A stretch of DNA of 64,000 nt from Deltaproteobacteria bacterium. GTDB taxonomy: Bacteria; Myxococcota_A; UBA9160; UBA6930. The notes under the pieces were generated by a model. The model had not been told where the DNA came from, ran no database searches, and saw only the letters and a program-made list of their open reading frames with translations. The position numbers were made by a program, and so were the translations under genes. The stretch is from positions 51,978 to 115,977 of the forward strand of contig JAJDAP010000033.1 of assembly GCA_029261795.1 (NCBI GenBank), in the 5' to 3' direction. Below, in pieces: positions 8,686 through 24,921 of this stretch (position 1 is its first letter; every line of letters begins with the position of its first letter).

Positions 8686-11600
8686 GCGCAGCGGCTCATT
8701 GCGCTCCCGGGGCGCTCGCTCGCCTTGTGCTTGCCCTCGCTCTCGCTGGCGGCCTTGTCGTCAGCGGCAGCGCGGCATATGGCCATGGCGAGGAGAGAAC
8801 CAAGGAAGCCGAGGACGCGAGCCAGAGCATCTACTCGGGAGCGGCTGGGATTCCTGCCGCGATCAACCTGGGCTTGACGGGAAGAAAGGGGAGCATCGAT
8901 CCGAGCCTGGCGGCTCGCCACCTGATGGAAAAGCAGAAGGTTGCCCTGGAGGGCACCTACACCCAGTCCGGGAAACAACATTTCGGCGGCGACCTGCGTG
9001 AGGATGTTCGCCTGGTCCGAACCGCGACCGATTCGGTTCGCCGCGGCCACCGTTGCCCCGCCGATGTCACGAAGCGCGTCTTCGACGTGACCGCCATCAA
9101 CGTCGACATCACGCTCAACCAGTACCACGACTTCTACCCCGGCTACATGTACGTGCTGACGGAAAACATCGAGAAGGTGCGGGAAGAGGAGCAGCGCAAC
9201 GAAGACGCGCGTTACGAGCTGAACGATCCCGGCGCCGTCACCAATGGCCTCTCGGGCGACATCATCCAGCCGCTCGCGATCCGCGTGAACCAGGGCGAAT
9301 GCCTGGTGGTGAACCTTTCCAACGAGGTGGAGGACGAAGACGTCAGCTTCCACCTGCACGGCTCCAGTCTCGTCGTGGCCGCGACGGGAGAACCGGCGAG
9401 CGCGGTGAACCCCGACACGAACGTCGCACCGGGCGAGAGCCAGGCATTCGAGTGGCACGTCGCGTACAGCCAGCAGGAGGGCGTCCACCAGGTTCACAGC
9501 CACAACCACACACAGGCCGCCACGGGAATGTTCGGAACCGTGACCGTCGAGCCGGAAGGGTCGCGCTACCTGAGCCCCTACACGGGAGAGCCGATCAAGA
9601 GTGGCTGGCTGGCCATGATCGAAGACCCCAATGGCCCGGACTTCCGCGAGTTCGTGGTCGTCTATCACGAGACCGGCGATGGCGAGATGCGCCCGCTCAA
9701 CATCGACGAAGAGATGATCTCCCAGCGCGATCCGACTGCGCACAACTACCTCTCCGCTGGAAAGGCGCTGAACTACCGGAGTGAGCCCTTCGGAAACGGT
9801 CTCCGAAAGGAGGAAGAACTCTTCGGTCTGATGGACGAGTCGCAGTCCTACAGCTCCTATCACAACGGCGATCCCTCGACTCCGATTCCGCGTTCCTATC
9901 TCGGCGACCCGGCCAAGTGGCGGCTCGTCCACGGCGGTACGGAGGTCTTCCATTCCCACCACCTGCACGGTGGCGCGATCCGCTGGCGCCGGCAGTCCGA
10001 ACTCGAGCAGGAGCTCGACCTGTTCGGGTCCGCCAACGAAAACCTGGCCACGAACGGGCCGATCAAGTATCCCCCGATCCAGGTCGCCTCGAACCGGGTC
10101 GACGTGCAATCGCTGGGTCCGGCAGAGACCCACGATCTGGTGATCGAGTGTGGCTCGGGCGGTTGTCAGCGGACGGCGGGCGACTTCCTGTATCACTGCC
10201 ACGTCGTCCACCACTACGTGGCAGGGATGTGGTCCTTCTGGCGCACCTACAACACGCTGCAGGTCGACGGCGCGAGGACCGACACGATGCCCGCGCTGGC
10301 CGAGCTGCCCGATCGACACGGCGGGATGCTCGCGGCCGTGGATTCGACCCAGCTGGTGGGGAAGACCGTCGAGTGGTTCGGGAAGGAGTTCGAGATTGCC
10401 GACCTCGACGCCAGTACCGACCTCGAGAAGAACGTCTTCTCCCTGACGGACTGGGTCGAGATGCAGTTGCCGCCGAAGGGGCTGCCCGGAAAGAAGCAGG
10501 ACTGGAAGGAACAGATCCTCGCCTATGACTCGAGCGTCTGGAACTGGGATCGGAAAGGCGCGCTCTATCTGGGCGAACCGGAAACGATGGTCCAATGGGC
10601 GAAGTACAAGCCTGCCTGGATGGGCAACGAGCCCGGCGACCGGCCCGCGTTGCTATTCGACCCGGCAACGGGCAAGCGCGCATTCCCGGGAATGCGGCCC
10701 CACTTCGGCAAGCGCCCACCGTTCAGTCCGGACAAGAACCCGGCGCCATTCCTCGAGCCGATCCACCGCCAGGCGAACGGTGCCAACAGCGCCAACGTCG
10801 CTCGCCCCGGGGAGAACGGGCCGTGGAGCCTGTGTCCACGGGAGGCCGACTCAACGAGCCAGCGTAAGCAGTTCAACATCCACGCGATCGCTACGCCGAT
10901 CACCATGTCCGAGGCGAAGTGGGGGCAAGCGGCCATCACGGATCCGCAGGGCCAGCTCTACGTGCTTCACGAAGAGGAAGAGAGGATCCGCGCGAATAAC
11001 GAGCTGAAGGTTCCGCTCGTCGTTCGCATGAACGTCCACGACTGCGCGGATGTGATTCTCACCAACGAGATTCCGGACGATCACGAGAACCTCTACTCCA
11101 GCAAAGTGAACATGCACATCCACTTCGTGCAGTTCGACGTCCAGGCCTCGGACGGTGTGATCACGGGAATGAACTACGAACAGTCGGTCCGCCCGTTCAC
11201 GATCCTCGAAGACGAAGGCAAGGGGATGGGCACCCCGCAGAACACCCTGACGAAATCCAGGGCGAAGGCCGGTGCCACCTCGATCAAGGTCGAGGACGCC
11301 AGCATCTACCAGGAGGGCGTCCAGGTCGGCGTCGGGATGGACGCCGTCGGACGTCTCGACATCCGGGAGATCGAGAAGATCAAGGGCAATACCCTGGTCT
11401 TCAGTGAGCCGCTCAGCCACGAACACAAGAAGGGCGAGTTCGTCAGCACCGAGTTCGTACGCTACCGCTGGTATGCCGATTCGGATTTCGGAATCACCTA
11501 CTGGCACGACCACGTCTATGGCCTGACCTCGTGGGGCCACGGCCTGTTCGGTTCGACGATCATCGAACCCAAGGGCTCCACCTATCACGACCCCGTCACC

Positions 11601-13514
11601 GGTCGGCCGGTTCGCAGCGGAAATGTCGTCGACATCCACACGACCGAACCGGTCTCCTCCCAGGTGACCGGCAGCTTCCGCGAATTCGTGATGCAGATCC
11701 AGGACAGCAACCCCACCACCGAAACCCAGGTGATCGCGGGTGCGGTGCCCAACAAGAAGCCCAGCCCGGAAGCCGAGCCGAACACCATCAACGCGCTCGG
11801 AAGCATGGATTCGTGGAGCCTGCCGCTGAATGCGTTCAGCTACCTGAACGGCGGCGATCGCACCTCGGGTGGCTCGATCGGGCTGCGAGTCGAGCCGCTG
11901 CATCGACGCCTGCGCGCCAACAGCGACGCGTCCGTCCTGTTCAGCAGCGTCGAACACGGCGATCCCGACACGCCCCTGGTGAACGCCTATCTCGGCGATC
12001 CCATCGTGATCCGCGCCCTGGCCGAAGCGGCGAACGAAAGCCACATGATCCACGTCCAGGGACACTACTTCCCGATCGAACGCTTCCTGACCGGTGCGCG
12101 CCCGCAGAGTTCGGTGCACGTCGCGATCGCGGAACGCTACGACCTGGTGATTCCGGCTGCGGGTGGCCCCCAGAAGATGGCGGGCGACTACATGTACCAC
12201 AGCGGGCGCCTCTCCCACCTCGGTGAGGGAATGTGGGGACTGATTCGCGTCGAGGACGCGCTCCGCAAGGAGCTGCAGCCGCTCCCGATGCGCCGTGAGA
12301 TTCCGAAGTCGGCGACCGAGGTCTGTCCGGCGGATGCGCCGCTGAAACAGTTCGAAGTGGCGGCCATCGACTTCCCGCTCGATTTCAATCCCGCCGCACC
12401 CGATGAGGTGGCCGCACCGACGGGAACGAACCGTAATCTGTTGCTAGGCAACCCAGAGGGGAAGATATTCGCGCTCGAGAGCGAGGTCGCCTCACTGAAG
12501 GCCGGGAAGCTCAGACCGCACCCGCTGACGCTGCGCGCGAACATCGGCGACTGCATCCAGGTGACGCTGCACAACCGGTTGAAGGCCGAGAAGGCCTCCT
12601 TCCACGCCGACATGCTCGCCTACGATCCGAACGATTCGATGGGCGCCAACATCGGTCGGAACCGGGGCGACCAGACGGTCTCGCCGGGTGGCGCGCGAAC
12701 CTACACCTTCTACGCGCATCCGGAATTCGGCGAAGCCACCGCGATGGTCAGCGACTACGGCAAGGTGACGCGCAACCTTCGCGACGGTCTCTATGGCGCC
12801 ATCATCATCGGCCCCCGCGGCTCGAGCTACCGAGACCCCGCCACCGGCAAGGACGTTTCCCTCTCCAATCGCTGGCAGGCCGACGTGATCGTCGATCGCT
12901 CCATCCGGGGAAACCGGAGCCGGGCCGACTACCGGGACTCGGCGCTCTACTTCCAGGAAGAAGACAACCTGATCGGGACGCCGTTCATGCCCTACATCTC
13001 GAGTTCAGCGGGCTTGTCGGCGGTGAACTATCGGGTCGAGCCGATGGCATGGCGTGCGGAGAAGTACGGGTGTCCCGTGGAGGACGCTGCCCACTGCCAG
13101 GGTAGAGCGCCCGACCCCGCGACTCCGGTCATCGAGGTGGCGGCGGGCAGTGCAGTACGAATGCACGTCATCGGGGCCCACGGAGAACAGAACTCGACCT
13201 TCAGCGTCGAGGGCCATCAATGGCCGCTCGAACCGAATGTGGTCGGCGCAGAGATGATGGAAGTCCAGCAGTTCGGTCCGACGGATACGTTGGAGCTCAA
13301 TCTGATGGCGGGCGGTCCGCACGCGCTCGCCGGCGACTACATGTGGAGCACCGAGCGAATGCCCTACTCGATCGCCGGGCAGTGGGGAATCTTGCGCGTG
13401 CTGGACGCGTCCGGAGAGTCGCGGCAACGGGCCGATGCCGCGTTCTCGACAGTGCTCGATGAGGCGAAACCGGAGACCGGTAGCTTGCTATTCGGCATCC
13501 CGGGTGGCCTGTAA
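8682..13514 (+). CDS. Giant MofA-like multicopper oxidase, 1610 residues
   Basis: Exported (signal peptide residues ~10-33). It consists of three consecutive cupredoxin modules. The first carries a complete oxidase copper set: H224-L-H226, H272-S-H274, H424-SH-H427-L-H429, and the H505-C506-H507...H511...M516 motif that joins type 1 and type 3 copper. The second keeps HIH (812-814), WHDH (942-944) and HMIHVQGH (1121-1128), but the HCH motif reads HSG at 1173, so its type-1 cysteine is gone. The third (from ~1290) is largely without ligands. Size and multi-module form match MofA of Leptothrix, a candidate Mn(II) oxidase; iodide oxidases of Roseovarius/Iodidimonas are also multicopper oxidases. 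Substrate is not decided by sequence. ATG at 8682 after AGGAG. Confidence 0.85.
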   Translation: MSAAAHCAPGALARLVLALALAGGLVVSGSAAYGHGEERTKEAEDASQSIYSGAAGIPAAINLGLTGRKGSIDPSLAARHLMEKQKVALEGTYTQSGKQHFGGDLREDVRLVRTATDSVRRGHRCPADVTKRVFDVTAINVDITLNQYHDFYPGYMYVLTENIEKVREEEQRNEDARYELNDPGAVTNGLSGDIIQPLAIRVNQGECLVVNLSNEVEDEDVSFHLHGSSLVVAATGEPASAVNPDTNVAPGESQAFEWHVAYSQQEGVHQVHSHNHTQAATGMFGTVTVEPEGSRYLSPYTGEPIKSGWLAMIEDPNGPDFREFVVVYHETGDGEMRPLNIDEEMISQRDPTAHNYLSAGKALNYRSEPFGNGLRKEEELFGLMDESQSYSSYHNGDPSTPIPRSYLGDPAKWRLVHGGTEVFHSHHLHGGAIRWRRQSELEQELDLFGSANENLATNGPIKYPPIQVASNRVDVQSLGPAETHDLVIECGSGGCQRTAGDFLYHCHVVHHYVAGMWSFWRTYNTLQVDGARTDTMPALAELPDRHGGMLAAVDSTQLVGKTVEWFGKEFEIADLDASTDLEKNVFSLTDWVEMQLPPKGLPGKKQDWKEQILAYDSSVWNWDRKGALYLGEPETMVQWAKYKPAWMGNEPGDRPALLFDPATGKRAFPGMRPHFGKRPPFSPDKNPAPFLEPIHRQANGANSANVARPGENGPWSLCPREADSTSQRKQFNIHAIATPITMSEAKWGQAAITDPQGQLYVLHEEEERIRANNELKVPLVVRMNVHDCADVILTNEIPDDHENLYSSKVNMHIHFVQFDVQASDGVITGMNYEQSVRPFTILEDEGKGMGTPQNTLTKSRAKAGATSIKVEDASIYQEGVQVGVGMDAVGRLDIREIEKIKGNTLVFSEPLSHEHKKGEFVSTEFVRYRWYADSDFGITYWHDHVYGLTSWGHGLFGSTIIEPKGSTYHDPVTGRPVRSGNVVDIHTTEPVSSQVTGSFREFVMQIQDSNPTTETQVIAGAVPNKKPSPEAEPNTINALGSMDSWSLPLNAFSYLNGGDRTSGGSIGLRVEPLHRRLRANSDASVLFSSVEHGDPDTPLVNAYLGDPIVIRALAEAANESHMIHVQGHYFPIERFLTGARPQSSVHVAIAERYDLVIPAAGGPQKMAGDYMYHSGRLSHLGEGMWGLIRVEDALRKELQPLPMRREIPKSATEVCPADAPLKQFEVAAIDFPLDFNPAAPDEVAAPTGTNRNLLLGNPEGKIFALESEVASLKAGKLRPHPLTLRANIGDCIQVTLHNRLKAEKASFHADMLAYDPNDSMGANIGRNRGDQTVSPGGARTYTFYAHPEFGEATAMVSDYGKVTRNLRDGLYGAIIIGPRGSSYRDPATGKDVSLSNRWQADVIVDRSIRGNRSRADYRDSALYFQEEDNLIGTPFMPYISSSAGLSAVNYRVEPMAWRAEKYGCPVEDAAHCQGRAPDPATPVIEVAAGSAVRMHVIGAHGEQNSTFSVEGHQWPLEPNVVGAEMMEVQQFGPTDTLELNLMAGGPHALAGDYMWSTERMPYSIAGQWGILRVLDASGESRQRADAAFSTVLDEAKPETGSLLFGIPGGL

Positions 13515-13602
13515 CCAGGAAGAGACCCGTTCGCAGGGTCGTGGGGCAGACATCGTGAATCAAGACAACAGATCAGGCGTGGCCAGGAGAGGTAGAAGCG
13601 AA

Positions 13603-14727
13603 ATGAAGATCCGAAGCGTCGTGGCGTTGACATTGGTGACCCTGGCCCTGCTCGGACTGTCGAGCATGGCCGCTTCGGCGGACACCCGACCCTTGGCACC
13701 GCTGCCGGACGCCGAGATGCCCGACGCGGCCAAGGTCGAGATCGGCAAGTGGATGTTCTTCGAGAAGCGGCTTTCCGGCGACGGCGATCGCGCGTGTGCG
13801 GACTGCCATCTCCCCGAACAGGGCTGGGCCTCCTCGGACGCACTTTCGATCGGCTACCCCGGAACCCTGCACTATCGAAACGCCAAGACCGTGATGAACG
13901 TGCGTTTCGCCAAGTACTTCTACTGGGATGGGCGTCTCGACGGGGGGAACGATCTTGCCACCCAGGCACGCGATTCCATGACCGACTCCCACTTCATGGC
14001 TGCGGACGGTCGGATCATGGGCCAGCGCATGAAGCAGATTCCCGGCTACGTGGAGATGTTCAAGGCCGCCTACGGCGGAGAGCCCCACTTCGGCCTGATC
14101 ATCAAGGCACTGGGGGACTTCGAGAAGACCCTGGTGTCGAAGAACGTTCCCTTCGACAACTACCTGAAGGGAGATACGAGCGCGCTTTCCGCCCAGGCCA
14201 AGCAGGGCCTGGACCTCTTCCAGGGCAAGGCGAACTGCATCCAATGCCACGATGGGTTCATGCTGAGTGATGGGGAGCCCCACGCGCTGGGCGTAGCCGT
14301 GAATCCCGACATCTTCGAAGTGAAGCGATACACGACGCTGCGTTCCCAGCAGATGTTCCTCGGCACCCCGAACTACCGGAACCTCAAGTCGGACCCGGGC
14401 TTCTTTGCCACGGAGAAGAACAACAAGTACTTCGGCAGCTTCGTGACTCCCTCGCTTCGCGAGGTCTCCAAGACGGCCCCGTACATGCACAACGGGATGT
14501 TGCCGACGTTGGAAGCCGTCGTGGACTTCTACAACGAGGGCGGAGGGCAGGCGACGAACAAGGACCCGGTGATCGCGCCGCTCGGCTTGAGTGCAGGCGA
14601 GAAGGCGGCGCTGGTCGCGTTTCTCGAGAGCCTCAGCGGGGACGATCTCGGCTACCGCTCCGCAGATTTTACCGAGGACAAGAGGCCACCCTACCAGCTC
14701 CTTCAGTGGGTGGGACAGGACAACTAG
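13603..14727 (+). CDS. Dihaem cytochrome c peroxidase / MauG family (IdrP-like)
   Basis: 374 residues with a signal peptide (VVALTLVTLALLGLSSMAAS). Two haem c motifs are visible, CADCH (about residue 65) and CIQCH (about 212), the N- and C-terminal haems of the CCP/MauG fold, plus FFEKRLSGDGDRAC, WDGRLDGGNDLATQA and TAPYMHNGMLPTLEAVVDFY, all family signatures. Start ATG 13603 follows aggagagg. In iodate-respiring bacteria two such proteins (IdrP1, IdrP2) are thought to remove peroxide made at IdrA. This gene stands 88 bp after the multicopper oxidase and directly upstream of a second peroxidase, a Rieske protein and the molybdoenzyme. Which of P1/P2 it corresponds to cannot be told here. Confidence 0.8.
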   Translation: MKIRSVVALTLVTLALLGLSSMAASADTRPLAPLPDAEMPDAAKVEIGKWMFFEKRLSGDGDRACADCHLPEQGWASSDALSIGYPGTLHYRNAKTVMNVRFAKYFYWDGRLDGGNDLATQARDSMTDSHFMAADGRIMGQRMKQIPGYVEMFKAAYGGEPHFGLIIKALGDFEKTLVSKNVPFDNYLKGDTSALSAQAKQGLDLFQGKANCIQCHDGFMLSDGEPHALGVAVNPDIFEVKRYTTLRSQQMFLGTPNYRNLKSDPGFFATEKNNKYFGSFVTPSLREVSKTAPYMHNGMLPTLEAVVDFYNEGGGQATNKDPVIAPLGLSAGEKAALVAFLESLSGDDLGYRSADFTEDKRPPYQLLQWVGQDN

Positions 14728-14764
14728 TGGATTCCAGCGATCCAACTTCCAAGAGGCAACCAAA

Positions 14765-16033
14765 GTGACGACGACGCACAGCGTAGTTACCCGATCATCC
14801 CGCGAGTCGAGCATGATCTCCCGAGTCGGAGGGGTACTGGCGATCGCGGCCCTGGCTCTCTTCCTTGGCGCACCCGCTCTGGCGGGAACCGCCAAGCAAG
14901 TCATCCAGGACGGCAAGAAGTTCTTCGAAATTGACGGCGAGCTGTTCCCCGCGCTCGAGGCCCTCGGGCCGCCTCCGATTCCGAAGGACAACCCCCAGAG
15001 CGTAGACGCGAACGGCTGGCCGCTGACGGACGACCCGAAGGTCAAGCTCGGCTACTTCCTGTTCTTCGAGCCCGCTCTCTCCGGAGACGGCAGCGTTTCC
15101 TGCCAGACCTGTCACGTCCAGGGCGCGGGTTGGGCATTGAATTCCGCCATCAGCCGCAGCTACCCCGGTCAGTCCCACTGGCGCAACTCCCAGTCGGTGG
15201 TGAACGCCGCCTACATGAGCAAGCTGTTCTGGGACGGGCACACCGCGAGCCTCGAGACCCAGGCACCGTCGGCGGCGAAGGGTCTGGCGGGCAACGGCAA
15301 GCAGGACATGATGACGGCCCGGCTGACCGTGGTTCCCGAGTACGTCGAGATGTTCACGGCCGCGTTCGGGTCGGCAAACAATCCCGTACACGACGCCTGG
15401 CGCGCGCTCTCCGCTTTCGAGCGAACCCTGACCAGCACCGATTCGCCGATCGATCAGTACCTGCGCGGTGATGAGGACGCGCTCGACGAGGCGCAGCTTC
15501 GCGGCATGGACCTCTTCAACGGCAAGGCCCGCTGCATCATGTGTCACAACGGCAAGCTGGCCTCGGACGAGAAGTTCTACAACCTCGGACTGCCCAGGCA
15601 GCCCCTGTTCTCCAACATCGCGAAGAACCAGATCGGCTTCAGATCGCAGAACTACGGCGCCGGGCTGCCCGAAGAGATGTTCCGGAAGACGAAGTCGGAC
15701 CTCGGGCTCTACCACCGTACGCACAATCACGAGGACGCGGGCCTGTTCCGAACCCAGCCGCTGCGCTTCATCGAGTACACGCCGCCCTACTACCACAACG
15801 GCGTGATGGACGACTTGTACGAGGTGGTCGAGTTCTACAACCAGGGCGGCGGCGAGGACTACGTGCAGAAGGACTTCGGCTACAGCACGAAGACCGATCG
15901 TCTGAAGGAACTGAACCTGACCGAGGACGAGATCGACGACCTGGTCGTCTTCCTCGAAGGGTTCAGTGGGCCGGAAGTCCTGATGGAGATTCCGATCCTG
16001 CCGAAACCGCCCGCCCGCATCTCCGTCAACTAG
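14765..16033 (+). CDS. Second dihaem cytochrome c peroxidase (IdrP-like)
   Basis: 422 residues from the GTG at 14765 (AGAGG eight bases upstream); an ATG at 14813 (MISRVGGVL) would still leave the signal peptide and is an alternative. Haem motifs are CQTCH (about residue 112) and CIMCH (about 257). Family landmarks FFEPALSGDGSVSCQ, FWDGHTASLETQAPS and TPPYYHNGVMDDLYEVVEFY are present. The mature N terminus has an extra ~50 residues before the first haem compared with its neighbour. Lies 37 bp after the first peroxidase and 26 bp before the Rieske gene, in one operon with IdrB- and IdrA-like genes. Confidence 0.8.
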   Translation: MTTTHSVVTRSSRESSMISRVGGVLAIAALALFLGAPALAGTAKQVIQDGKKFFEIDGELFPALEALGPPPIPKDNPQSVDANGWPLTDDPKVKLGYFLFFEPALSGDGSVSCQTCHVQGAGWALNSAISRSYPGQSHWRNSQSVVNAAYMSKLFWDGHTASLETQAPSAAKGLAGNGKQDMMTARLTVVPEYVEMFTAAFGSANNPVHDAWRALSAFERTLTSTDSPIDQYLRGDEDALDEAQLRGMDLFNGKARCIMCHNGKLASDEKFYNLGLPRQPLFSNIAKNQIGFRSQNYGAGLPEEMFRKTKSDLGLYHRTHNHEDAGLFRTQPLRFIEYTPPYYHNGVMDDLYEVVEFYNQGGGEDYVQKDFGYSTKTDRLKELNLTEDEIDDLVVFLEGFSGPEVLMEIPILPKPPARISVN

Positions 16034-16059
16034 ATCCCACCAGAGCGAAGGAACGGACC

Positions 16060-16611
16060 ATGGCCACTGAATTCAAGATCTTGGAAACAGACAATGATGC
16101 GGAGGGCCGCCCCTGCCAGCTGAGCAGGCGGCGTTTCCTACAGGCCGCTGGCGTTGGCGGAGCCACCATCGCGATGCTCACGATTCCGGGCTGCGGAACG
16201 ATGATGGCACGGACGATTCCGCTGCCGCGACAGTCCGTGGCGAAGCTGGCCGATCTGAAGGTCGACAGGCCCGTGACGATCAGCTTTCCCGACCCCGGGG
16301 CAAAGTGCATGCTAGTCAAGCTAGGTGTCCCCGCCGGCGGCGGTATCGGACCGGACGGAGACATCGTCGCATTCAGCCTCGATTGTCCCCACATGGGCAT
16401 GACGCTGATCGGCAGCTACAACGCAAAACACAAGGGACTCGGCCCCTGCCCGTCGCATCTCACCCGGTTCGATCTGACCCGCTACGGGATCGTGATCTCG
16501 GGTCACGCCACCCAGAGCCTGCCCCAGGTAACCCTGGAACTTCAGGACGGTGAGATTTTCGCGACCGGGTTGAGAGGCCTGATCTACGGCCGAACACAGA
16601 ACCTCGGCTGA
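16060..16611 (+). CDS. idrB: Tat-exported Rieske protein, AioB/IdrB-like small subunit
   Basis: 183 residues. A twin-arginine signal (SRRRFLQAAGVGGATIAML) sends the folded protein to the periplasm. The [2Fe-2S] Rieske ligands are C109-P-H111-MG and C130-PS-H133, with the CPSHLTRFDLTRYG stretch typical of the small subunits of arsenite oxidase and iodate reductase. The Rieske centre would pass electrons between the molybdenum subunit and c-type cytochromes. The ATG at 16060 follows gaaggaac. It lies immediately upstream of the large subunit, the same order as in aioBA and idrBA. Assigned to IdrB rather than AioB because of the two flanking dihaem peroxidases. Confidence 0.7.
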   Translation: MATEFKILETDNDAEGRPCQLSRRRFLQAAGVGGATIAMLTIPGCGTMMARTIPLPRQSVAKLADLKVDRPVTISFPDPGAKCMLVKLGVPAGGGIGPDGDIVAFSLDCPHMGMTLIGSYNAKHKGLGPCPSHLTRFDLTRYGIVISGHATQSLPQVTLELQDGEIFATGLRGLIYGRTQNLG

Positions 16612-16661
16612 TCGAATCGAATCCACGAGAAACATCGCAAGAGTCATTGAGGAAAGAGGAC

Positions 16662-19346
16662 ATGGCGAACGAACCGTATTTCACTCCAGCTAGCGAAGTT
16701 CCCCTGCCGCCCACGGACGCGGACGAGTTCACCACCTGTTGCGACTACTGTGTCGTTGCCTGTGGCTACAAGGTCTACCGTTGGCCCGTCGGCAAGGAAG
16801 GCGGTCCCAAGGCCGCCGAGAATGCGCTCGGCGTCGACTTCCCCAGGAAGCCGCTGCAGGGGGGCTACATCAGCCCGAACATGCACAACGTCGTCACCGC
16901 CGACGGCAAGAAGCAGAACGTGATCGTCGTGCCCGACAAGGACTCGAAGGTCGTCAACCGCGACGGTGACCACAGTATTCGCGGCGGTTGCATCGCCCAG
17001 AAGTGTTACAACCCGGACACGCCCACACGCGATCGGCTGCAGCATCCGATGATGCGGGTGAACGGAAAGCTCGAACGCATTTCGTGGGACGACGCCACCG
17101 ACATCTTCGCGGAGATGGCGACCTACGTCATCGACAAGTACAGCGAGAACGCCTACGCGCAGAAGCAGTACTCGTACCAGTTCTTCGAGAACAACTACGC
17201 GCTGACCAAGCTCGCACTTCGTCACATCCACACTCCGGCCCATGCCTTCCACGACAACCCCGGGCACGCGCCGGATACCCCGGGCTTCCGGGACGCTGGC
17301 ATCGACAACTTCTCGGCCTCCTACGACGACTGGTACGAGGCGGATGTCGTGTTCCTCAGCGGTACCGACCCGTTCGAAACGAAGACGATCATCTGGAACG
17401 AGTACATGCTGCGCGGTTCGATGGAGCATGGTCAGAAACAGATCTTCGTGAATCCGCGCCGGACCTCGGGGGTCGACTACGCCGTGAAGAACGGTGGTCT
17501 GCACCTCCAGCTCATCCCCGGAACGGACACCGTGCTCTACATGGCTCTGGCGCGAGTGATCCTGGAGAACGGTTGGGAAGACAAGGAGTGGCTGGCCAAG
17601 TTCCCGCCGGCCAACAAGTGGGAATCCAACTCCGGCTTCGGACGGGGCATCCGAGACACGCCGTGGCAATGGCGCACCACGTGGGGAAAGGTCCAGACCA
17701 AGGGCCTGGAGGACTACAAGTCCTGGATCCTGTCGCAGAAGGAGAGCGAGCTGGAGTTTGCCTCCGAGCTCTGCGGCGTACCGAAGGAGCAGATCCTGAA
17801 GGCGGCCGAGATGATGGCAAAGCCGCGCGAGGACGGCAGCCGTCCGAAGCTCTCGGTGGCCATCGAGAAGGGCAACTACTGGACGAACAACTACAGCAAC
17901 ACCGCGTCCATCGCCTCGCTCGGATTGATCTGCGGGGCCGGCAACCGTCCTGGACAGATGATCAGTCGACTGGGCGGCCACCAGCGTGGCGGAAACAGCG
18001 GAGGATCCTATCCGCGTTCGAAGGGACCGGAGAAGTTCTTTGGCCGGCGGCGAATGACGCTGAACCTGGACAAGTGGATGGAGAACGGGCACGTCCGCAT
18101 GGCCTACGTCGTCGGCACGACCTGGGTCGGCGCGATGTCGGCCTCCCAGTCGCTGCAGGATTCGATGACCAAGCTGACGCGAGGCAATCCGCACCAGATC
18201 ACCCGCAAGAACAAGGCGCACGCCATCGAGGTCATGAAGCAGCGGGTCGACTCCGGCGGCACCATGATCGTCAACCAGGACATCTACCTGCGCGAGCCGA
18301 TCGGTAGCGAGCTAGCGGACTTCGTCTTCCCCGCAGCGACCTGGGGCGAAGAGGTCTTCGTACGCTCCAACGGCGAACGTCGCATGCGGATCTACGACAA
18401 GTTCTACGACGCGCCGGGCGAGTCCAAGCCGGATTGGTGGATCGTGGGTCAGATCGGCCAGAAGATGGGCTTCCCCGGTTTCGATTGGAAGACCTCCAAC
18501 GACGTCTATGAAGAGAGCATGAGAGGCAATCGCCGTGGCCGACGGGACTACGCGGTCTTCCTGAAGTACGCCAAGAAGGCCGGGAAATCCGGCCACCAGT
18601 TCTTGCGCGAGCTCGGCACCCAGGGAATCCAGACCCCGGTGCGTGAAGTCGACGGAAAGATCGTGGGCACCAAGCGTTTCCACGACAGCACGTTGGAGCT
18701 TCCCGACACCGGTCCCGAGGCGTTGACCTGGATGCACAAGATATTCAAGTCGTTCAAGACGCAGACGGGACGGCCGCACCTGCTCAAGTCGCCGTGGTTC
18801 ATCTTTGCCGACTTCTTCGATGCGATCAAACCGCAGGATGACGAGTTGTGGATCTCGAGCGGCCGCATCAACGAGGTCTGGCAGTCCGGCTTCGACGACG
18901 TGCAGCGGCGCCCCTACATCACACAGCGTTGGCCAGCGAACATCCTCGAGATCCACCCGGACGATGCGAAGGCACGGGGCATCGAGAGTGGCGATCTGGT
19001 CGAGGCCTACAGCGACCGGGTAGCGGTCCAGACAGGAGGCTTCATCCACCGCACGCTGGAAGATGCGATGTACACCGGCCTGGTGAAGAACGGGCACATC
19101 GAATTCAAGAGCGCCTCGGTGGAGCTGGTCGCAATGGTGACGGACATCGTTCGCCCTGGAACGACCTTCTCGATCTGCCTCATGAACCCGAAGCGGGCTG
19201 TGAACGCGCTCTCGCCGAGCGTCACCGACCCGATGAGCGGAAACTACCGCTTCAAGCTCGGGGTGGGGAAGGTTCGCAAGATCGGGGAGAGTCCGTACAA
19301 GAATGATCTCGCCCAGATGTCATTCACGAGCCGGACGTTCAGCTAG
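16662..19346 (+). CDS. idrA: Arsenite-oxidase-family molybdoenzyme, probable iodate reductase catalytic subunit
   Basis: 894 residues, DMSO-reductase superfamily (bis-MGD molybdenum). The iron-sulfur motif is C27-x2-C30-x3-C34. The fourth ligand position carries serine (S105 in HSIRGG), as in AioA/IdrA, so a [3Fe-4S] cluster is expected. The substrate-side R436-x-G-G-H440 pair (SRLGGHQRGG), known from AioA, is kept. The segment that supplies another arsenite-contact histidine in AioA reads HDNPGHAPDTPGFRD here, without a matching histidine as far as can be judged by eye. No Tat signal of its own; it would be co-exported with IdrB. ATG 16662 follows ggaaagagg. Context with two CCP-type peroxidases fits dissimilatory iodate reductase; an unrelated AioA-like oxidoreductase remains possible. 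Confidence 0.65.
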   Translation: MANEPYFTPASEVPLPPTDADEFTTCCDYCVVACGYKVYRWPVGKEGGPKAAENALGVDFPRKPLQGGYISPNMHNVVTADGKKQNVIVVPDKDSKVVNRDGDHSIRGGCIAQKCYNPDTPTRDRLQHPMMRVNGKLERISWDDATDIFAEMATYVIDKYSENAYAQKQYSYQFFENNYALTKLALRHIHTPAHAFHDNPGHAPDTPGFRDAGIDNFSASYDDWYEADVVFLSGTDPFETKTIIWNEYMLRGSMEHGQKQIFVNPRRTSGVDYAVKNGGLHLQLIPGTDTVLYMALARVILENGWEDKEWLAKFPPANKWESNSGFGRGIRDTPWQWRTTWGKVQTKGLEDYKSWILSQKESELEFASELCGVPKEQILKAAEMMAKPREDGSRPKLSVAIEKGNYWTNNYSNTASIASLGLICGAGNRPGQMISRLGGHQRGGNSGGSYPRSKGPEKFFGRRRMTLNLDKWMENGHVRMAYVVGTTWVGAMSASQSLQDSMTKLTRGNPHQITRKNKAHAIEVMKQRVDSGGTMIVNQDIYLREPIGSELADFVFPAATWGEEVFVRSNGERRMRIYDKFYDAPGESKPDWWIVGQIGQKMGFPGFDWKTSNDVYEESMRGNRRGRRDYAVFLKYAKKAGKSGHQFLRELGTQGIQTPVREVDGKIVGTKRFHDSTLELPDTGPEALTWMHKIFKSFKTQTGRPHLLKSPWFIFADFFDAIKPQDDELWISSGRINEVWQSGFDDVQRRPYITQRWPANILEIHPDDAKARGIESGDLVEAYSDRVAVQTGGFIHRTLEDAMYTGLVKNGHIEFKSASVELVAMVTDIVRPGTTFSICLMNPKRAVNALSPSVTDPMSGNYRFKLGVGKVRKIGESPYKNDLAQMSFTSRTFS

Positions 19347-19781: not shown

Positions 19782-19788
19782 AACCCCG

Positions 19789-20451
19789 ATGGGCAGCAGG
19801 AGAGCCCTCGCCTCATCGGTAGTCATCGTGGTTGCTCTACTCTGCACCCAGGCCTCTGGCGGTACGCCCGCGGTCGATGCCGACCGGATCGAGGAGAACC
19901 TGGACTCGAGCAAGACGATCACGCGCCCCGAAGTCCTGGGCGGCGTCGAACGCCTGGGCATTCGCCAGGGGATTCCCGGCGCTTGCCACCTGTTCGGGAT
20001 GGATGGCTACCTGAAGGAGTACATGGTGTGGTCGGCAGATCTGAAGCTTGCGGTTCAAGTCCACGATGACGGAACCGTCGCTGACGCTGAAAGCGCTCAC
20101 TATGTCGTTTCGATGACCTGCACCCCGACCCGCGGGCACATGCCCGAGATCACCGTGACGTCCAGGAAAGAGAATCCAGACGGCTCGGTGACGATGACGC
20201 TCCCGCAGGTCCACCACGGCCCTCGACGGTTCCTGATCTTGAGCGGTCACACCGGAGCTTGCCGCCTGCTCGGTTACGCCGCGGCCGTCGAGTCCTCTCG
20301 AGAGTGGTCGGAGCATGCCGTTGATGGCGTCTCCCTGGCGATGGATGGGAAGATCTATGAGAAGGCATCGGGAACATTCCTGACCGCGCTCGCATGCACG
20401 AACGAGCCGCAGAAGCGAAGGACGTGGGTTGGAAATGAACAGGGCCAATAG
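19789..20451 (+). CDS. Secreted cysteine-containing protein of unknown function
   Basis: 220 residues from ATG 19789, with a signal peptide (ALASSVVIVVALLCTQASGG). The mature part has cysteines in GACHLFGMDGYLKEYMVWSA, VVSMTCTPTRGH, TGACRLLGYAAAVE and TALACTNE, spaced as two GACxLxG repeats. This suggests two similar halves held by disulfides. No CxxCH, so it is not a cytochrome. It starts 7 bp after one cytochrome gene and overlaps the next by 17 bp, so it belongs to the same operon. No family recognised. Confidence 0.55.
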   Translation: MGSRRALASSVVIVVALLCTQASGGTPAVDADRIEENLDSSKTITRPEVLGGVERLGIRQGIPGACHLFGMDGYLKEYMVWSADLKLAVQVHDDGTVADAESAHYVVSMTCTPTRGHMPEITVTSRKENPDGSVTMTLPQVHHGPRRFLILSGHTGACRLLGYAAAVESSREWSEHAVDGVSLAMDGKIYEKASGTFLTALACTNEPQKRRTWVGNEQGQ

Positions 20452-21079
20452 CAGTTTCGTGATCGGCCGGCGTGCCAGGCTGGCTGCGATCGCTGCCCTG
20501 ACCGCCCTTTCGTTCGTTGGGGCCGGTGTCGCACACGCGGCTCGTCCTGATCCCGCCGCAGGTGAGGAACTAGCAAAAACGGCTTGCGCCTCGTGCCATG
20601 GGCTGGATGGGGTCAGCCCCGAAGCCGCCTACCCGAACCTCAAGGGTCAAAAGGTCAAGTACCTGGTCCAGCAGCTCGAGGCTTTTCAGAGCGGCCTACG
20701 CACGAGTCCGGAGCATGCGGCTCCGGTGGCGGGTGAACTGTCCAAGGGCGACATCAAGAACCTCGCGGCCTACTACTCCGGACTATCCGATGAGGCCAGC
20801 ATCGCAGACGCGAGCCCCCCGGATTTCGCGGCAGGGGAGGAAAAGGCGAAAATGATCTGCGCCGCCTGCCACGGACTGGACGGAATCAGTCTCGTGGCTG
20901 CCTATCCGAATCTGCGGGGACAGAAGGTCGACTACCTGATCCGACAGCTCGAGGCTTTCCGAAGCGGCGAACGCGAGAGTCTGCAGCTGATGAACCCGGT
21001 GGCGAGTCAACTGACCGATGACGACATCAAGAACCTGGCAGCTTTCTTCTCGAGCCTGGAACCGGTGAGCCAGGAATAG
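20435..21079 (+). CDS. Dihaem cytochrome c4-like protein
   Basis: 214 residues with signal peptide (AAIAALTALSFVGAGVAHAA). Two similar halves each carry CxxCHGLDG (CASCHGLDGVSPEAAYPN and CAACHGLDGISLVAAYPN), followed by LxGQKVxYLxxQLEAFxSG and a methionine, the duplicated class I layout of cytochrome c4. Acts as a periplasmic two-electron relay. ATG 20435 is preferred over TTG 20429, since GGAAATGAACAGG places it better. The short overlap with the preceding gene indicates coupled translation. Confidence 0.75.
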   Translation: MNRANSSFVIGRRARLAAIAALTALSFVGAGVAHAARPDPAAGEELAKTACASCHGLDGVSPEAAYPNLKGQKVKYLVQQLEAFQSGLRTSPEHAAPVAGELSKGDIKNLAAYYSGLSDEASIADASPPDFAAGEEKAKMICAACHGLDGISLVAAYPNLRGQKVDYLIRQLEAFRSGERESLQLMNPVASQLTDDDIKNLAAFFSSLEPVSQE

Positions 21080-21092
21080 GAGTTTCGATCGG

Positions 21093-21449: not shown

Positions 21450-21476
21450 CCGTGTTCGCCCATCGACTCGATCATG

Positions 21477-22457
21477 CTAGTCGTGGCTTCCGCCGCCAAC
21501 AGCAAGCAGCTCCACCTCGAAGACGAGTGTCGCGTTCGGCTCGATCGCCGGGACTCCCGGACGCGGGGGCTGGCCACGAATGCCATAGGCCAGATGCGGT
21601 GGCACGAACAGCTTCCATCTGGCGCCTTCCGACATCAGCATCAGTCCTTCCGAGTAGCCCGGAAGGACACTCTCGGACAGCACGAACTCGGCAGGCTCGG
21701 AATCGAACGTGTCGTCGAACTCGCTTCCATCCAGGAAGGTGGCCCTGTGATGAACCTTGACCTTCGCTCCGGCCCTGGGCTTCTGGCCCAGGCCTGGTCT
21801 CAGGATCCGGTATTGCAAACCACTCGGCAGCACCACGACGTCCGATTGGCGGGCGTTCAGCTCGAGGAAGCCGCGGCTCTCCTCCCGGTTTCGCGCCGCG
21901 ATCTGTTCTCGCTCGTCGCGCGCCCTGCGAGCGATCTCCCGGCCGTACTCCTTGACGATGAAATCCATCTCGGCCCGGCTCAGCTTCGGCTCCTGGCCCG
22001 TGTAGGCGTGGGCGATCCCTGCGTTGAAGAGTTCGAGGTCGAGATTCTCGAGCTGCTTGACGACGTTCTGCCCCAGGTCGTATCCGATGCTGTAGCTGAC
22101 CATCTCCTGGCGCAGATCCGAGCTCTCTCCTGCCGCGGAGAACACCACGGCTCGCGCCCTGATGCCCGGAATCTCCTTCACGAGGACCTCGTAGCTCCCG
22201 GGTCGATCGAACCGGTGGCGATAGGAGCCAGCCTCGAGCCGGTGCTCCCTCTCGGGCAGACTCGCCTCGCCGATGATGCTCAGGGTGAGTTCGCTCTGCG
22301 TGGAGCTCTGGAATCTCACGCTGTCACCGGCCTGCAAGACCACATGATCGGGGCGGATCCCGATAGTCGTGATCTCGAGGGTGAGCTCGTCGGCCCCAAG
22401 CGAAACCGGGAAAAGGGCCACGATCAGGAAGGCGACCCGTCGCTTCATTCTCTTCAT
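21477..22457 (-). CDS. Periplasmic FKBP-type peptidyl-prolyl isomerase with N-terminal cupredoxin-like domain
   Basis: 326 residues with signal peptide (RRVAFLIVALFPVSLGAD). Residues ~25-110 form a cupredoxin-like beta domain (GDSVRFQSSTQSELTLSIIG, RFDRPGSYEVLV) without copper ligands. Residues ~115-195 are the helical FKBP_N dimerisation part (SYSIGYDLGQNV...), and the C terminus is a complete FKBP domain (VHHRATFLDGSEFDDTFDSE, YSEGLMLMSEGARWKLFVP, LAYGIRG). It should fold exported proteins, plausibly the large oxidase or cytochromes. The Leptothrix mofA operon also carries a putative isomerase gene (mofB). Convergent with the cytochrome run, divergent from the peroxidase at 22580. Confidence 0.75.
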   Translation of the reverse strand: MKRMKRRVAFLIVALFPVSLGADELTLEITTIGIRPDHVVLQAGDSVRFQSSTQSELTLSIIGEASLPEREHRLEAGSYRHRFDRPGSYEVLVKEIPGIRARAVVFSAAGESSDLRQEMVSYSIGYDLGQNVVKQLENLDLELFNAGIAHAYTGQEPKLSRAEMDFIVKEYGREIARRARDEREQIAARNREESRGFLELNARQSDVVVLPSGLQYRILRPGLGQKPRAGAKVKVHHRATFLDGSEFDDTFDSEPAEFVLSESVLPGYSEGLMLMSEGARWKLFVPPHLAYGIRGQPPRPGVPAIEPNATLVFEVELLAVGGGSHD

Positions 22458-22579: not shown

Positions 22580-23704
22580 ATGATGCCGCTGAATCGCGAA
22601 GTCTTTGCGATGCTATTTGCACTGTCCGCTCTCTGGACACCGCGACCACTGCTGGCGGGGAACGAAGCCGCGTCCGCCCCGCCCCTGCCGCTGGGTCTGG
22701 AAGCCGCCGCGTACTTCGAGCCAGCCGACAATCCCGTCACAACGGCCAAGGTCGAACTGGGCCGGCTGTTGTTCTTCGACAGGCGACTCTCGGCGAACGA
22801 CAGCATCGCCTGCGCCAGCTGTCACTCGCCAGCACACGGCCTCTCCGACGGCCTGAAGGTGTCTTCGGGAATCCAGGGGCGACGAGGGGGCCGGAACGCT
22901 CCAACGATCATCAACCGATTCTCGAATTCCAGCCAGTTCTGGGACGGTAGAGCGGCCAGCCTGGAAGCGCAGGCAAAAGGGCCCCTGACCAGCCCGCTCG
23001 AGATGGGGATGCCCGACCTCGCGGCGGTGACGAAGAAGGTCGCGTCCATCGGGGGCTACCGGAAGCCGTTTCGAGAGGTCTTCGGACGGGACATCAATAT
23101 CGATGACATCGTCAGGGCGATCGCCTCCTACGAACGCACGATCGTCTCTGGAAACTCGAGATGGGATCGCTTCAACGCGGGCGACCGGGAAGCCATGACG
23201 GAAGCCGAGCAGCGAGGGCTCGCGCTCTTCACCGGGAAGGCACGTTGCAGCCAGTGTCACTCGGGCTGGAACCTGACCGATGAAAAATTCCACAACATCG
23301 GAGTCGGCTGGGACAAACAGCCTGTCGATGAGGGCCGCTTCGCGATCACGGGCAGGGCCAGGGACACAGGCGCTTTCAAGACGCCCACGCTGAGGGAGAT
23401 CGCACGGACCGCGCCCTACATGCATGATGGCAGCATCGGTACGCTCGGCGAGGTGGTGGACTACTATAGTGACGGCGTGATTTCGAATCCCTTCCTCGCC
23501 GTTGAGTTGGCGCGCCCCGCCCTGTCACTGGAAGAGACCATCCGCTTGTATGGCGAGCGTTCGAAGCTCGGCAGGGAGGTCGCCGTTCCCGTCAAGGAGC
23601 TGAACCTGACGAAAGGCGAAAAGGCCGATCTCATCGCCTTCTTGCACGCACTCGGCGGTGAAGGATGGCAGCACGTACGAGAACCCCGCGCGTTTCCCGA
23701 CTGA
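22580..23704 (+). CDS. Third dihaem cytochrome c peroxidase family protein
   Basis: 374 residues; the ATG at 22580 is chosen because the signal peptide (LFALSALWTPRPLLAGNE) follows directly. Haem motifs are CASCH (about residue 78) and CSQCH (about 223); FFDRRLSANDSIACASCHSP, FWDGRAASLEAQAKGPL, NPLEMGM-like TSPLEMGMPDL and APYMHDGSIGTLGEVVDYYS are intact. It is closer to classic CcpA/MauG proteins than the two peroxidases of the idr-like operon. It starts 122 bp from the divergent FKBP gene and leads a rightward set of copper-handling genes. Confidence 0.8.
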   Translation: MMPLNREVFAMLFALSALWTPRPLLAGNEAASAPPLPLGLEAAAYFEPADNPVTTAKVELGRLLFFDRRLSANDSIACASCHSPAHGLSDGLKVSSGIQGRRGGRNAPTIINRFSNSSQFWDGRAASLEAQAKGPLTSPLEMGMPDLAAVTKKVASIGGYRKPFREVFGRDINIDDIVRAIASYERTIVSGNSRWDRFNAGDREAMTEAEQRGLALFTGKARCSQCHSGWNLTDEKFHNIGVGWDKQPVDEGRFAITGRARDTGAFKTPTLREIARTAPYMHDGSIGTLGEVVDYYSDGVISNPFLAVELARPALSLEETIRLYGERSKLGREVAVPVKELNLTKGEKADLIAFLHALGGEGWQHVREPRAFPD

Positions 23705-24339: not shown

Positions 24340-24921
24340 ATGAGAAGACTGCCTTCAGGATGGCGATGCTGGCTCGTCTTGCTGGTGCTCCTGGCGCCCG
24401 GCGGGGCCATGGCCGACGACGATCGGTTGGTTCGGGGAGGGGCGTTCACCCTTACCGATCACACCGGTCGCGTCGTGAGCGACCAGGATTTTCGCGGCCA
24501 GTTCATGTTGATCTACTTCGGCTACAGCCACTGTCCCGACGTCTGCCCGACGGGCTTGTCGGTAGCGACGCAGGCGATGCAGGCGCTGGGCGCTGCGGGG
24601 AAGCGGGTCCAACCGCTCTTCATCAGCTTCGATCCGGAACGTGACACCGTCCCCGTGTTGGCGGCGTACATGCGCCACTTCCACCCCCGCTTCCTCGGTC
24701 TGACGGGGTCGAAGGAGCAAGCCATCGCCGCCGCCAACGCATTCTCCGTCGACGTGTCGGCCACCTACGCCGCGAACACGCCCGGCATCGACTACTCGAT
24801 GAACCACTCCGCCTTTACCTACCTCGTGGGTCCCGAAGGCAGGTTGCGCTCGATGTACCGCGAAGGCATCGACGGAGCGACGATGGCCGTGGCGATCCGC
24901 AGACACCTGGAGGGGCAGTGA
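24340..24921 (+). CDS. SCO1/SenC-family copper chaperone (first copy)
   Basis: 193 residues. A signal peptide (WLVLLVLLAPGGAMAD) precedes a thioredoxin-like SCO domain: FTLTDHTGRVVSDQDFRGQF, YFGYSHCPDVCPTGL with the copper CxxxC motif, SFDPERDTVPVLAAYM, and the third ligand histidine in YSMNHSAFTYLVGPEG. SCO proteins deliver copper to CuA or other cuproenzymes and manage their thiols. The end abuts the start of a second SCO gene. Confidence 0.85.
   Translation: MRRLPSGWRCWLVLLVLLAPGGAMADDDRLVRGGAFTLTDHTGRVVSDQDFRGQFMLIYFGYSHCPDVCPTGLSVATQAMQALGAAGKRVQPLFISFDPERDTVPVLAAYMRHFHPRFLGLTGSKEQAIAAANAFSVDVSATYAANTPGIDYSMNHSAFTYLVGPEGRLRSMYREGIDGATMAVAIRRHLEGQ

What the first reader, a model, noticed from the sequence alone, without database searches (positions are those of the whole stretch)
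13603..19346. Probable dissimilatory iodate reductase locus joined to a giant copper oxidase
Two dihaem peroxidases, a Tat-exported Rieske protein and an AioA-family molybdoenzyme lie in one direction. This is the gene content of idrP1/idrP2/idrB/idrA as described in iodate-respiring bacteria. Here it follows, 88 bp downstream, a MofA-like multicopper oxidase with its own type-1 copper protein. Iodide oxidases of known iodine bacteria are multicopper oxidases, so one island may hold both an oxidative and a reductive half of a halogen (or metal) cycle. I know of no described locus with this combination.
Basis: partly seen in the sequence, partly recalled or inferred. Interest (0 to 1): 0.88.

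Follow-up and report, generated by a model that had tools for sequence, protein, structure and literature searches.

The report
Copper oxidase built into iodate reductase
In an uncultured bacterium, and in relatives from three further bacterial phyla, the genes of a likely iodate-reducing enzyme sit in one row with a giant copper oxidase that in some of those relatives is fused to one of the enzyme's haem subunits, so the two are predicted to work as one machine pairing an oxidising step with iodate reduction.

Summary
In detail: 13603-19346 encodes idrP1, idrP2, idrB and idrA homologues in the published order, 88 bp after a 1610-residue MnxG/MofA-type multicopper oxidase (MCO), itself overlapping a type-1 copper protein gene. 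The molybdoenzyme branches inside the IdrA clade, far from arsenite oxidase. The MCO link is no accident. The order cupredoxin-MCO-P1-P2-B-A recurs in Myxococcota, Pseudomonadota, Verrucomicrobiota and Planctomycetota; in the last two the MCO is fused to IdrP1. A genome found with the MCO alone as query carried the whole set. MCO-linked IdrP1 and IdrP2 form their own clades. The window, and in part its near kin, also carry FKBP, cytochrome c, SCO1 and exported-unknown genes downstream, the gene types reported for a mof (manganese oxidase) operon. Most IdrA-positive genomes examined lack the MCO (34 of 42). Four full-text searches gave no paper with the combination. Iodate reduction is inferred by homology; the MCO's substrate is unresolved, with Mn(II) my first choice and iodide or plain O2 removal live rivals. 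Verdict: real, conserved, apparently undescribed variant of the Idr system, functionally untested.

The parts
7822..8685 (+). Exported type-1 copper protein (cupredoxin domain plus C-terminal carboxypeptidase-regulatory-like domain), 287 aa
   Evidence: Cu ligands H149, C193, H196, M199 (numbered from base 7840) invariant in the 27 sequences aligned, window included, of 31 at hand; AlphaFold2 pLDDT 85, PDB matches NirK, amicyanin, plastocyanin at E about 1e-4 to 1e-3; ATGA overlap with the MCO
8682..13514 (+). Giant MnxG/MofA-type multicopper oxidase, 1610 aa, Sec signal by inspection
   Evidence: Cu-oxidase Pfam domains; best solved relative MnxG 9bxa, E 5e-102; four MCO copper motifs in order at 224, 272, 424, 505
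13603..14727 (+). idrP1-type di-haem peroxidase, 374 aa
   Evidence: CCP_MauG, two CxxCH; clade of MCO-linked P1 with support 99
14813..16033 (+). idrP2-type di-haem peroxidase, 406 aa (or from GTG 14765, 422 aa)
   Evidence: CCP_MauG, two CxxCH; clade of MCO-linked P2 with support 99
16060..16611 (+). idrB-type Tat-exported Rieske subunit, 183 aa
   Evidence: SRRRFL and CXHX18CX2H; TIGR02694 above cut-off
16662..19346 (+). idrA-type molybdopterin catalytic subunit, 894 aa, no signal peptide by inspection
   Evidence: inside the IdrA clade; CX2CX3CX70S at 27-105
19786..20451 (+). Exported protein of unknown function, found only at window-type MCO loci
   Evidence: hit in 3 of 3 window-type MCO+ loci with downstream sequence (L001, L002, L003), in none of the other loci of the 86 searched
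20435..21079 (+). Di-haem cytochrome c, MofC-like by gene context only
   Evidence: two CxxCH, while the relatives at L001, L002 and L003 show one; cytochrome c Pfam; 3 of 3 window-type MCO+ loci, none of the others searched
21477..22457 (-). Exported FKBP-type peptidyl-prolyl isomerase, MofB-like by gene context only
   Evidence: FKBP_N + FKBP_C; present at L001 and L002, not found at L003, none of the others searched
22580..23704 (+). Third MauG-like di-haem protein (P3)
   Evidence: CCP_MauG, TIGR03791 245 bits, under its cut-off of 444; long branch of its own
24340..24921 (+). SCO1/SenC-like copper chaperone, first of a tandem pair
   Evidence: matches at L001, L002 and one MCO-less locus, L021; read as SCO1-like by inspection, not scanned itself
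24922..25563 (+). SCO1/SenC copper chaperone, second
   Evidence: PF02630 E 9e-48

Best explanation
Six adjacent genes (7822-19346) encode a cupredoxin, a giant MnxG/MofA-type multicopper oxidase and a complete idrP1-P2-B-A set, and they likely make one periplasmic iodate-reductase system into which the copper oxidase has been built as an extra, O2-using oxidising subunit. Likely working: IdrAB would take electrons from cytochrome c or the cupredoxin and reduce iodate to hypoiodous acid; IdrP1 and IdrP2 would remove the H2O2 that is thought to form; the MCO, docked on or fused to IdrP1, would oxidise a reduced partner, Mn(II) as first choice, and pass the electrons to O2 at its trinuclear copper site. 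Shown by sequence: gene content and order, cofactor motifs, clade membership, recurrence across phyla, MCO-IdrP1 fusions, separate clades of MCO-linked P1 and P2, a mof-like accessory set downstream in the window and, in whole or part, in its near kin. Inferred: iodate as substrate, a physical complex in this organism, O2 as the MCO's acceptor, Mn(II) as its donor.
For: IdrA: three plasmid relatives at 50-52%, the other 37 listed records under 30%, known AioA hosts among them; trees place it inside the IdrA clade together with an Azonexus/Rhodocyclaceae group and a Ruegeria group. The Azonexus locus has an ATP-binding protein and a sigma-54 regulator just upstream, much as reported for Azoarcus DN11 (PMC10149662, sections 7 and 10 read). 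Linkage: MCO at window, L001, L002, L003, L009 (extended as L107), L012, L066, L106 and L105: MCO followed by or fused to P1 in 9 of 9, P2 next in 9 of 9, B and A in 8 of 9 (L106 ends in P2). Fusion: 8 database proteins of 2099-2536 aa hold the MCO, one or two predicted membrane spans, then a di-haem domain with two CxxCH; precomputed Pfam lists PF03150 in all 8. Out of sample: G1285, found with the MCO as query in the family of an IdrA-positive genome, has cupredoxin-[MCO-P1]-P2-B-A. P1+P2: MCO loci one clade, support 99; the grouping seen in the IdrA tree is rejected for them, p-AU 7.6e-5. MCO and IdrA identities correlate, Mantel r 0.95, p 1e-4, 9 pairs. Copper motifs A-B-C-D in order in 28 of 30 proteins (P0121-P0150) of the MCO clade. 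The accessory genes are of the types reported for the mof operons of Rubrivivax A210 and Leptothrix (PMC8218464 and PMC5566968, passages read). IdrA, P1 and P2 were found together in active bands of SCT and DN11, so an MCO fused to P1 would sit in that complex.
Against: No activity evidence for any of these proteins. Most IdrA-positive genomes examined lack the MCO (34 of 42), so it is not needed for iodate reduction in general. The MCO is far below NCBI's MnxG cut-off (171 of 3100 bits). In the fusions the MCO is predicted to sit in the periplasm, where Mn oxide deposits would be awkward. OmpB, another MofA relative, is reported as needed for Fe(III) reduction, so family kinship does not fix the reaction (PMC5566968). 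The mof-like set was not found at the fused loci L009, L012, L105 and L107 as far as their flanks reach, apart from weak SCO1-like hits at L012 and L105; FKBP and SCO1 are also missing at L003. No RuBisCO match in the 91%-complete host assembly, so Mn lithoautotrophy by that route is unlikely. Sequences of experimentally proven IdrA (SCT, IR-12, DN11, R. azorensis) could not be fetched; the bracket rests on stand-ins.
Confidence: 0.5

Rival explanations
1. The MCO is an iodide (or hypoiodite) oxidase, so one complex runs both halves of an iodine cycle: IdrAB reduces iodate when O2 is short, the MCO oxidises iodide when O2 is present.
For: Known bacterial iodide oxidases are multicopper oxidases (PMC10643221, PMC12535851, passages read); the MCO lies with an iodate-reductase-type set in the 9 loci read.
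Against: Nearest relatives are Nitrospirota-named and MnxG-type proteins, and accessory genes look mof-like. Known iodide oxidases are described as extracellular, here the fused form is periplasmic by prediction. No IoxA sequence was compared.
Confidence: 0.2
2. The MCO is an O2 scavenger: it takes electrons from the cupredoxin or cytochrome c and reduces O2 to water next to the O2-sensitive IdrAB, while P1 and P2 remove H2O2.
For: Induced R. azorensis cells reduced iodate only without air and the authors suggest that Idr is O2-sensitive (PMC11445184, parts 2 and 3 of 5 read); the MCO keeps all four copper motifs, overlaps a cupredoxin gene and in some genomes is fused to a peroxidase; the host has one COX1-family gene and so probably respires O2.
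Against: A 1600-residue MnxG/MofA-type enzyme is an unusual choice; most other idr genomes examined do without it.
Confidence: 0.2
3. The reductase of this clade uses another oxyanion (bromate, chlorate, selenate) rather than iodate.
For: Only distant members of the clade are tested; window IdrA is 50-54% identical to the stand-ins for tested enzymes.
Against: It lies in one clade with the two groups that stand for tested IdrA, with P1, P2 and B of Idr type. The position of AioA Glu203 is Asp in 12 of 13 MCO-linked and in 122 of 122 Azonexus-type IdrA.
Confidence: 0.1
4. The molybdoenzyme is an arsenite oxidase (as automatic annotation says).
For: TIGR02693 and TIGR02694 above cut-off; databases call relatives arsenate reductase (azurin).
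Against: 27-30% identity to AioA of NT-26, Thermus HB8 and Acidiphilium, on the other side of a branch with support 100; AioA lacks idrP1/P2 in its neighbourhood (PMC8692401 section 10; NT-26 locus); Glu203 replaced.
Confidence: 0.03
5. The neighbourhood is an accident of one genome or an assembly error.
For: The window is from a 139-contig assembly and the MCO is found in 1 of 235 genomes drawn from the phylum.
Against: Same order in other assemblies and phyla, fusions, and five exact contig-length matches between MCO and IdrA protein clusters.
Confidence: 0.02

Closest known systems
Dissimilatory iodate reductase IdrABP1P2 (Pseudomonas SCT, Denitromonas IR-12, Azoarcus DN11, Aromatoleum TC-10)
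   Same: P1-P2-B-A order, di-haem peroxidases, Tat Rieske, signal-less molybdoenzyme, Fe-S motifs
   Different: Here preceded by a cupredoxin and a giant MCO; P1 and P2 form a separate clade; in Planctomycetota and Verrucomicrobiota P1 is fused to the MCO; no sensor kinase or sigma-54 regulator among the few upstream frames scanned
mof operon of Leptothrix/Rubrivivax (MofA, MofB, MofC, copper chaperone)
   Same: Giant MCO with four copper motifs, FKBP-type isomerase, cytochrome c, copper chaperone, exported unknown protein
   Different: An idrP1-P2-B-A set lies between the MCO and the rest, and the FKBP gene is on the other strand; orthology of the accessory proteins to MofB and MofC, and of the MCO to MofA, was not tested
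MnxG of Bacillus (Mnx Mn(II) oxidase)
   Same: Multi-cupredoxin-domain MCO, aligned in several pieces over most of MnxG
   Different: Far below NCBI's MnxG equivalog cut-off; no MnxE/MnxF looked for
Nitrospirota-named MCOs including Ca. Manganitrophaceae
   Same: Nearest group in the tree, about 49-53% identity over 90% or more
   Different: Outside the clade that holds all idr-linked MCOs (support 100); idr linkage there not known
AioAB arsenite oxidase
   Same: Two-subunit Mo/Rieske architecture, cofactor motifs
   Different: 30% identity or less, no peroxidases, Glu203 differs

Membership tests
Idr (iodate reductase) | IdrA branches in the IdrA clade, away from AioA | tested here: met
   proven IdrA represented by stand-ins (Azonexus, Ruegeria)
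Idr (iodate reductase) | Conserved order P1-P2-B-A in one direction | tested here: met
   that idrAB is preceded by idrP1P2 is stated in PMC8801600 (passages)
Idr (iodate reductase) | IdrA [3Fe-4S] motif CX2CX3CX70S (reported for DN11) | tested here: met
   in the window; exact spacing in 65 of 92 rows, missed among others by L001 and L003, by AioA rows L084 and L085 and by the truncated L086, but met by AioA of NT-26, so it does not tell the two families apart
Idr (iodate reductase) | IdrB with Tat signal and CXHX18CX2H | tested here: met
Idr (iodate reductase) | P1 and P2 di-haem, Sec-exported | tested here: met
   two CxxCH each; Sec signal by inspection only
Idr (iodate reductase) | Iodate reduction in vivo or in vitro | not testable with these tools
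   needs culture or expression
AioA arsenite oxidase | Groups with characterised AioA | tested here: not met
AioA arsenite oxidase | Arsenite-site Glu203 (residue number recalled) | tested here: not met
   Asp in 12 of 13 MCO-linked rows, Ser in 1; Glu in 3 of 3 AioA
MofA/MnxG-type multicopper oxidase | Four MCO copper motifs in order | tested here: met
   28 of 30 proteins P0121-P0150, misses P0131 and P0144
MofA/MnxG-type multicopper oxidase | MnxG equivalog score | tested here: not met
   171 bits against cut-off 3100
MofA/MnxG-type multicopper oxidase | mofB, mofC and chaperone-type genes nearby | tested here: inconclusive
   gene types present; orthology to MofB/MofC not tested; a search for MofA-like loci in 250 genomes of the order of a betaproteobacterial assembly (G276) found nothing at E 1e-50
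MofA/MnxG-type multicopper oxidase | Mn(II) oxidation | not testable with these tools
   needs assay
IoxA-type iodide oxidase | Sequence kinship with IoxA | not tested
   no IoxA sequence at hand

The most novel reading that the evidence does not exclude
A single periplasmic complex wires copper, haem, Fe-S and molybdenum centres together so that electrons drawn by the MCO from Mn(II) (or iodide) can leave either to O2 or, through IdrP1 and IdrB, to iodate: Mn(II) oxidation driven by iodate where O2 is absent.
Probability: 0.1. Interest if true: 0.95.

Novelty: new variant of a known kind. Interest (0 to 1): 0.76.

Why it matters
Iodate reduction shapes the iodine budget of low-oxygen seawater, and how hypoiodous acid and O2 are handled there is open. 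A conserved, partly fused copper oxidase partner in four phyla points to an unknown function of IdrP1/P2 and to a direct tie between the iodine cycle and a Mn(II)-oxidase-type enzyme. It gives a concrete gene set for testing whether Mn and iodine redox cycles are coupled inside one cell.

Tried and rejected
Arsenite oxidase: rejected by identity gap, tree and neighbourhood. Chance neighbourhood or chimera: rejected by recurrence and fusions. Cupredoxin as a private partner of the MCO: only partly so; relatives at 25-37% identity stand at many MCO-less idr loci (directly before P1 in 17 of 72, after idrA in 11 of 72), while those of MCO loci are closer, 55-79%. Single gain of the MCO on the IdrA tree: two changes counted and one clade rejected with 9 MCO rows under LG+G4 (p-AU 0.0057; with L005 added 0.023), but not rejected with 6 MCO rows under the mixture model (p-AU 0.324); IdrB says nothing (0.39 and 0.41). 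I leave gain or loss open. The P1 and P2 stems of the window group are long, so attraction of long branches cannot be fully excluded there. MofA loci for comparison: nothing at E 1e-50 in 250 genomes of the order of G276. Proven IdrA by a third protein search with Azonexus IdrA: SCT, IR-12 and DN11 do not appear by name among the 120 listed of 1338. The giant MCO of a Nitrospinae genome (G239, L095) is only a weak 40% partial match and not on the contig of its idrA. Promoter and terminator scan: no better than shuffles. Rfam and tRNA scans empty.


Full report
1. What is in the sequence. The window is G000:C33:51978-115977 of a 5.74 Mb, 139-contig assembly. On the + strand, in one run, lie a cupredoxin (7822-8685), a 1610-residue multicopper oxidase (8682-13514), two di-haem CCP/MauG-type proteins (13603-14727 and 14813-16033), a Tat-signal Rieske protein (16060-16611) and an 894-residue molybdopterin enzyme (16662-19346). 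Gaps are -4, 88, 85, 26 and 50 bp, and the scan lists no terminator-like site on the + strand between 7.4 and 22.4 kb (the scan as a whole is no better than shuffles), so one transcript is plausible. GC is 62.9% in 7822-25563 against 66.5% and 65.9% on the two sides, which fits, but does not prove, acquisition. By kinship the host is probably a myxococcotal bacterium: the idrA of G065, same order as the window, forms an identical pair with that of L014, titled Myxococcota Arabian9_MAG_39, and the genome of L001 (titled Deltaproteobacteria ARS66) appears as same family (contig and coordinates equal).

2. The molybdoenzyme is IdrA-type. Against plasmids it has three relatives at 50-52% (Azonexus, Vibrio THAF190c, Thiothrix); the other listed records are under 30% (40 of 734 records listed). 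In both trees (84 rows; 47 rows with a mixture model; both of the quick kind) the window lies inside the clade that holds both the Azonexus/Rhodocyclaceae group and the Ruegeria group, with AioA of NT-26, Thermus HB8 and Acidiphilium outside and two 42% proteins of the window's phylum in between. The proven iodate reducers could not be fetched. PMC8801600 (passages) puts the experimentally confirmed iodate respirers in one small clade; the Azonexus locus shares an upstream regulator arrangement with DN11, and R. azorensis, whose IdrA was found in an active gel band (PMC11445184), is a roseobacter like Ruegeria (recalled). That these two groups hold the proven enzymes is therefore an inference.

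3. Motifs. The DN11 paper (section 7 read) lists CX2CX3CX70S in IdrA, CXHX18CX2H and a Tat motif in IdrB, two CX2CH in P1 and P2: all are met in the window. The exact IdrA spacing is met in 65 of 92 rows; L001 and L003 are among the misses, and AioA of NT-26 meets it too. Of the four residues that line the arsenite site of AioA (names recalled), His195, Arg419 and His423 are kept in all rows counted, while Glu203 is Asp in 12 and Ser in 1 of 13 MCO-linked rows, Asp in 122 of 122 Azonexus-type rows, Ser in 5, Asp in 2, Pro in 1 and Ala in 1 of 9 nearer MCO-less rows, and mostly Ser elsewhere (52 of 64; Asp 7, Ala 4, Glu 1).

4. The copper oxidase is part of the locus in many genomes. In the 80 loci, with their limited flanks, the MCO was found at L001, L002, L003, L009, L012 and L066. 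Whole-genome search of 42 IdrA-positive genomes found it in 8, of which 7 are strong (62% or more) and one, G239, weak (40% over part). In G241 the MCO and idrA (L007) lie on different contigs, the MCO contig ending inside P2. One of the 8, G236, has two idr loci, one with (L002) and one without the MCO (L019), which suggests different jobs. Searches with the MCO as query: 1 of 235 genomes of the window's phylum (its own), 1 of 246 (order of L012), 1 of 188 (class of L009, fusion as query), 2 of 60 relatives, 0 of 250 (order of G276), 1 of 194 (order of G236), 2 of 241 (family of G241); cut-offs ran from 1e-50 to 1e-100, sets overlap, and the centres were chosen as IdrA-positive. The one new positive, G1285, was then read: cupredoxin, MCO-P1 fusion of 2518 codons, P2, B and A in order. 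No MCO-positive genome without idr was met in these searches. Five MCO clusters share the exact length of their longest contig with an IdrA cluster (135930, 25109, 12257, 111820, 46530), which I read as linkage; only the best 120 of each list were visible.

5. Fusion. Database proteins P0136-P0138, P0140-P0143 and P0145 hold the MCO, one (P0137, P0142) or two predicted membrane spans, then a di-haem domain with two CxxCH (12 proteins examined, of which P0144, 1917 aa, has no haem motif and P0121, P0133 and P0139 are unfused). Pfam finds DUF3347, Cu-oxidase and CCP_MauG in the 2 scanned. Long open frames of this kind are seen at L009/L090, L012 and L092/L106, cut by contig ends in some, and in full at L105, next to P2. 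The di-haem part falls with IdrP1 of the window-type loci. With two spans both parts would face the periplasm (inference).

6. History. The MCO clade of 36 rows (support 100) holds all 11 rows with idr linkage evidence; for the other 25 the context is not known. Next to it stand Nitrospirota-named proteins, one of Ca. Manganitrophaceae (the root is not certain). For P1 and P2 the MCO loci are one clade each and jointly, and the grouping seen for IdrA is rejected for P1+P2 (p-AU 7.6e-5). For IdrA the evidence on one clade is mixed (0.0057, 0.324). Identities of MCO and IdrA over 9 linked pairs correlate (Mantel r 0.95). dN/dS of the MCO is about 0.10-0.13 against L001 and L003. The MCO thus seems to belong most closely with P1 and P2.

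7. Accessory genes. Downstream of idrA lie an exported unknown protein, a di-haem cytochrome c, an FKBP isomerase (opposite strand), a third MauG-like protein and two SCO1 chaperones. The unknown protein and cytochrome c were found at 3 of 3 window-type loci with downstream sequence (the cytochromes there have one haem motif), FKBP and SCO1 at 2 of 3; at MCO-less loci among the 86 searched they were found at none, none, none and one (L021). At the fused loci none but weak SCO1-like hits were seen. PMC8218464 (passages) reports for Rubrivivax A210 mofA, mofB (isomerase), mofC (cytochrome c), a metallochaperone and an exported unknown protein: the same five gene types. Orthology was not tested. 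The cupredoxin keeps its four copper ligands in the 27 sequences aligned and models as a cupredoxin.

8. Reading. Iodate reductase plus a built-in MCO is well supported as an arrangement; a joint machine is supported by the fusion together with the reported joint recovery of IdrA, P1 and P2 from active bands. The MCO's substrate is not known. Mn(II) is favoured by family and accessory genes; against it stand the predicted periplasmic place of the fused form and OmpB, a MofA relative needed for Fe(III) reduction. Iodide oxidation and O2 removal remain possible. The host has one COX1-family match and no RuBisCO match.

9. Print. Full-text searches for iodate reductase with multicopper oxidase (4 papers), iodide oxidation with iodate, MCO and manganese oxide (2), idrA with multicopper (3) and iodate reduction with manganese oxidase (0) gave no description of the combination; of these I read passages of PMC8692401 (and its sections 8-10), PMC10643221, PMC12535851 and PMC9732548, and saw only the listing of PMC4993787 and PMC10019592. 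Of PMC10989891 I read the first of three parts. The library holds open-licence papers only.

Noticed in passing
L006, L010, L011, L016, L017, L019, L020, L021 and others (17 of 72 loci): A cupredoxin related to the window's 7822-8685 stands directly before idrP1 (17 of 72) or after idrA (11 of 72) in idr loci without the MCO; it may be an overlooked idr accessory electron carrier.
   Followed up: partly
G236: L002 and L019: One gammaproteobacterial assembly (NP964) carries two idr loci, one with and one without the MCO.
   Followed up: no
L100, L101 (G214, G218): Two genomes of the window's phylum carry 42% identical IdrA-like proteins that branch between AioA and IdrA, with Asp at the Glu203 position.
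   Followed up: no
L095 (G239): A Nitrospinae genome with idrA also has a different giant MCO (frame of 2197 codons, 40% partial match) on another contig.
   Followed up: no
L105 4479-5669 (minus strand): Just past idrA in G1285 lies a 396-codon frame with one CxxCH motif, perhaps a cytochrome partner.
   Followed up: no
window 56554-63278: A second molybdopterin oxidoreductase (963 aa) followed by a protein with a 4Fe-4S binding domain; apparently unrelated to Idr.
   Followed up: no
window 22580-23704: A third MauG-like di-haem protein on its own long branch, with a higher MauG score than P1 and P2.
   Followed up: partly
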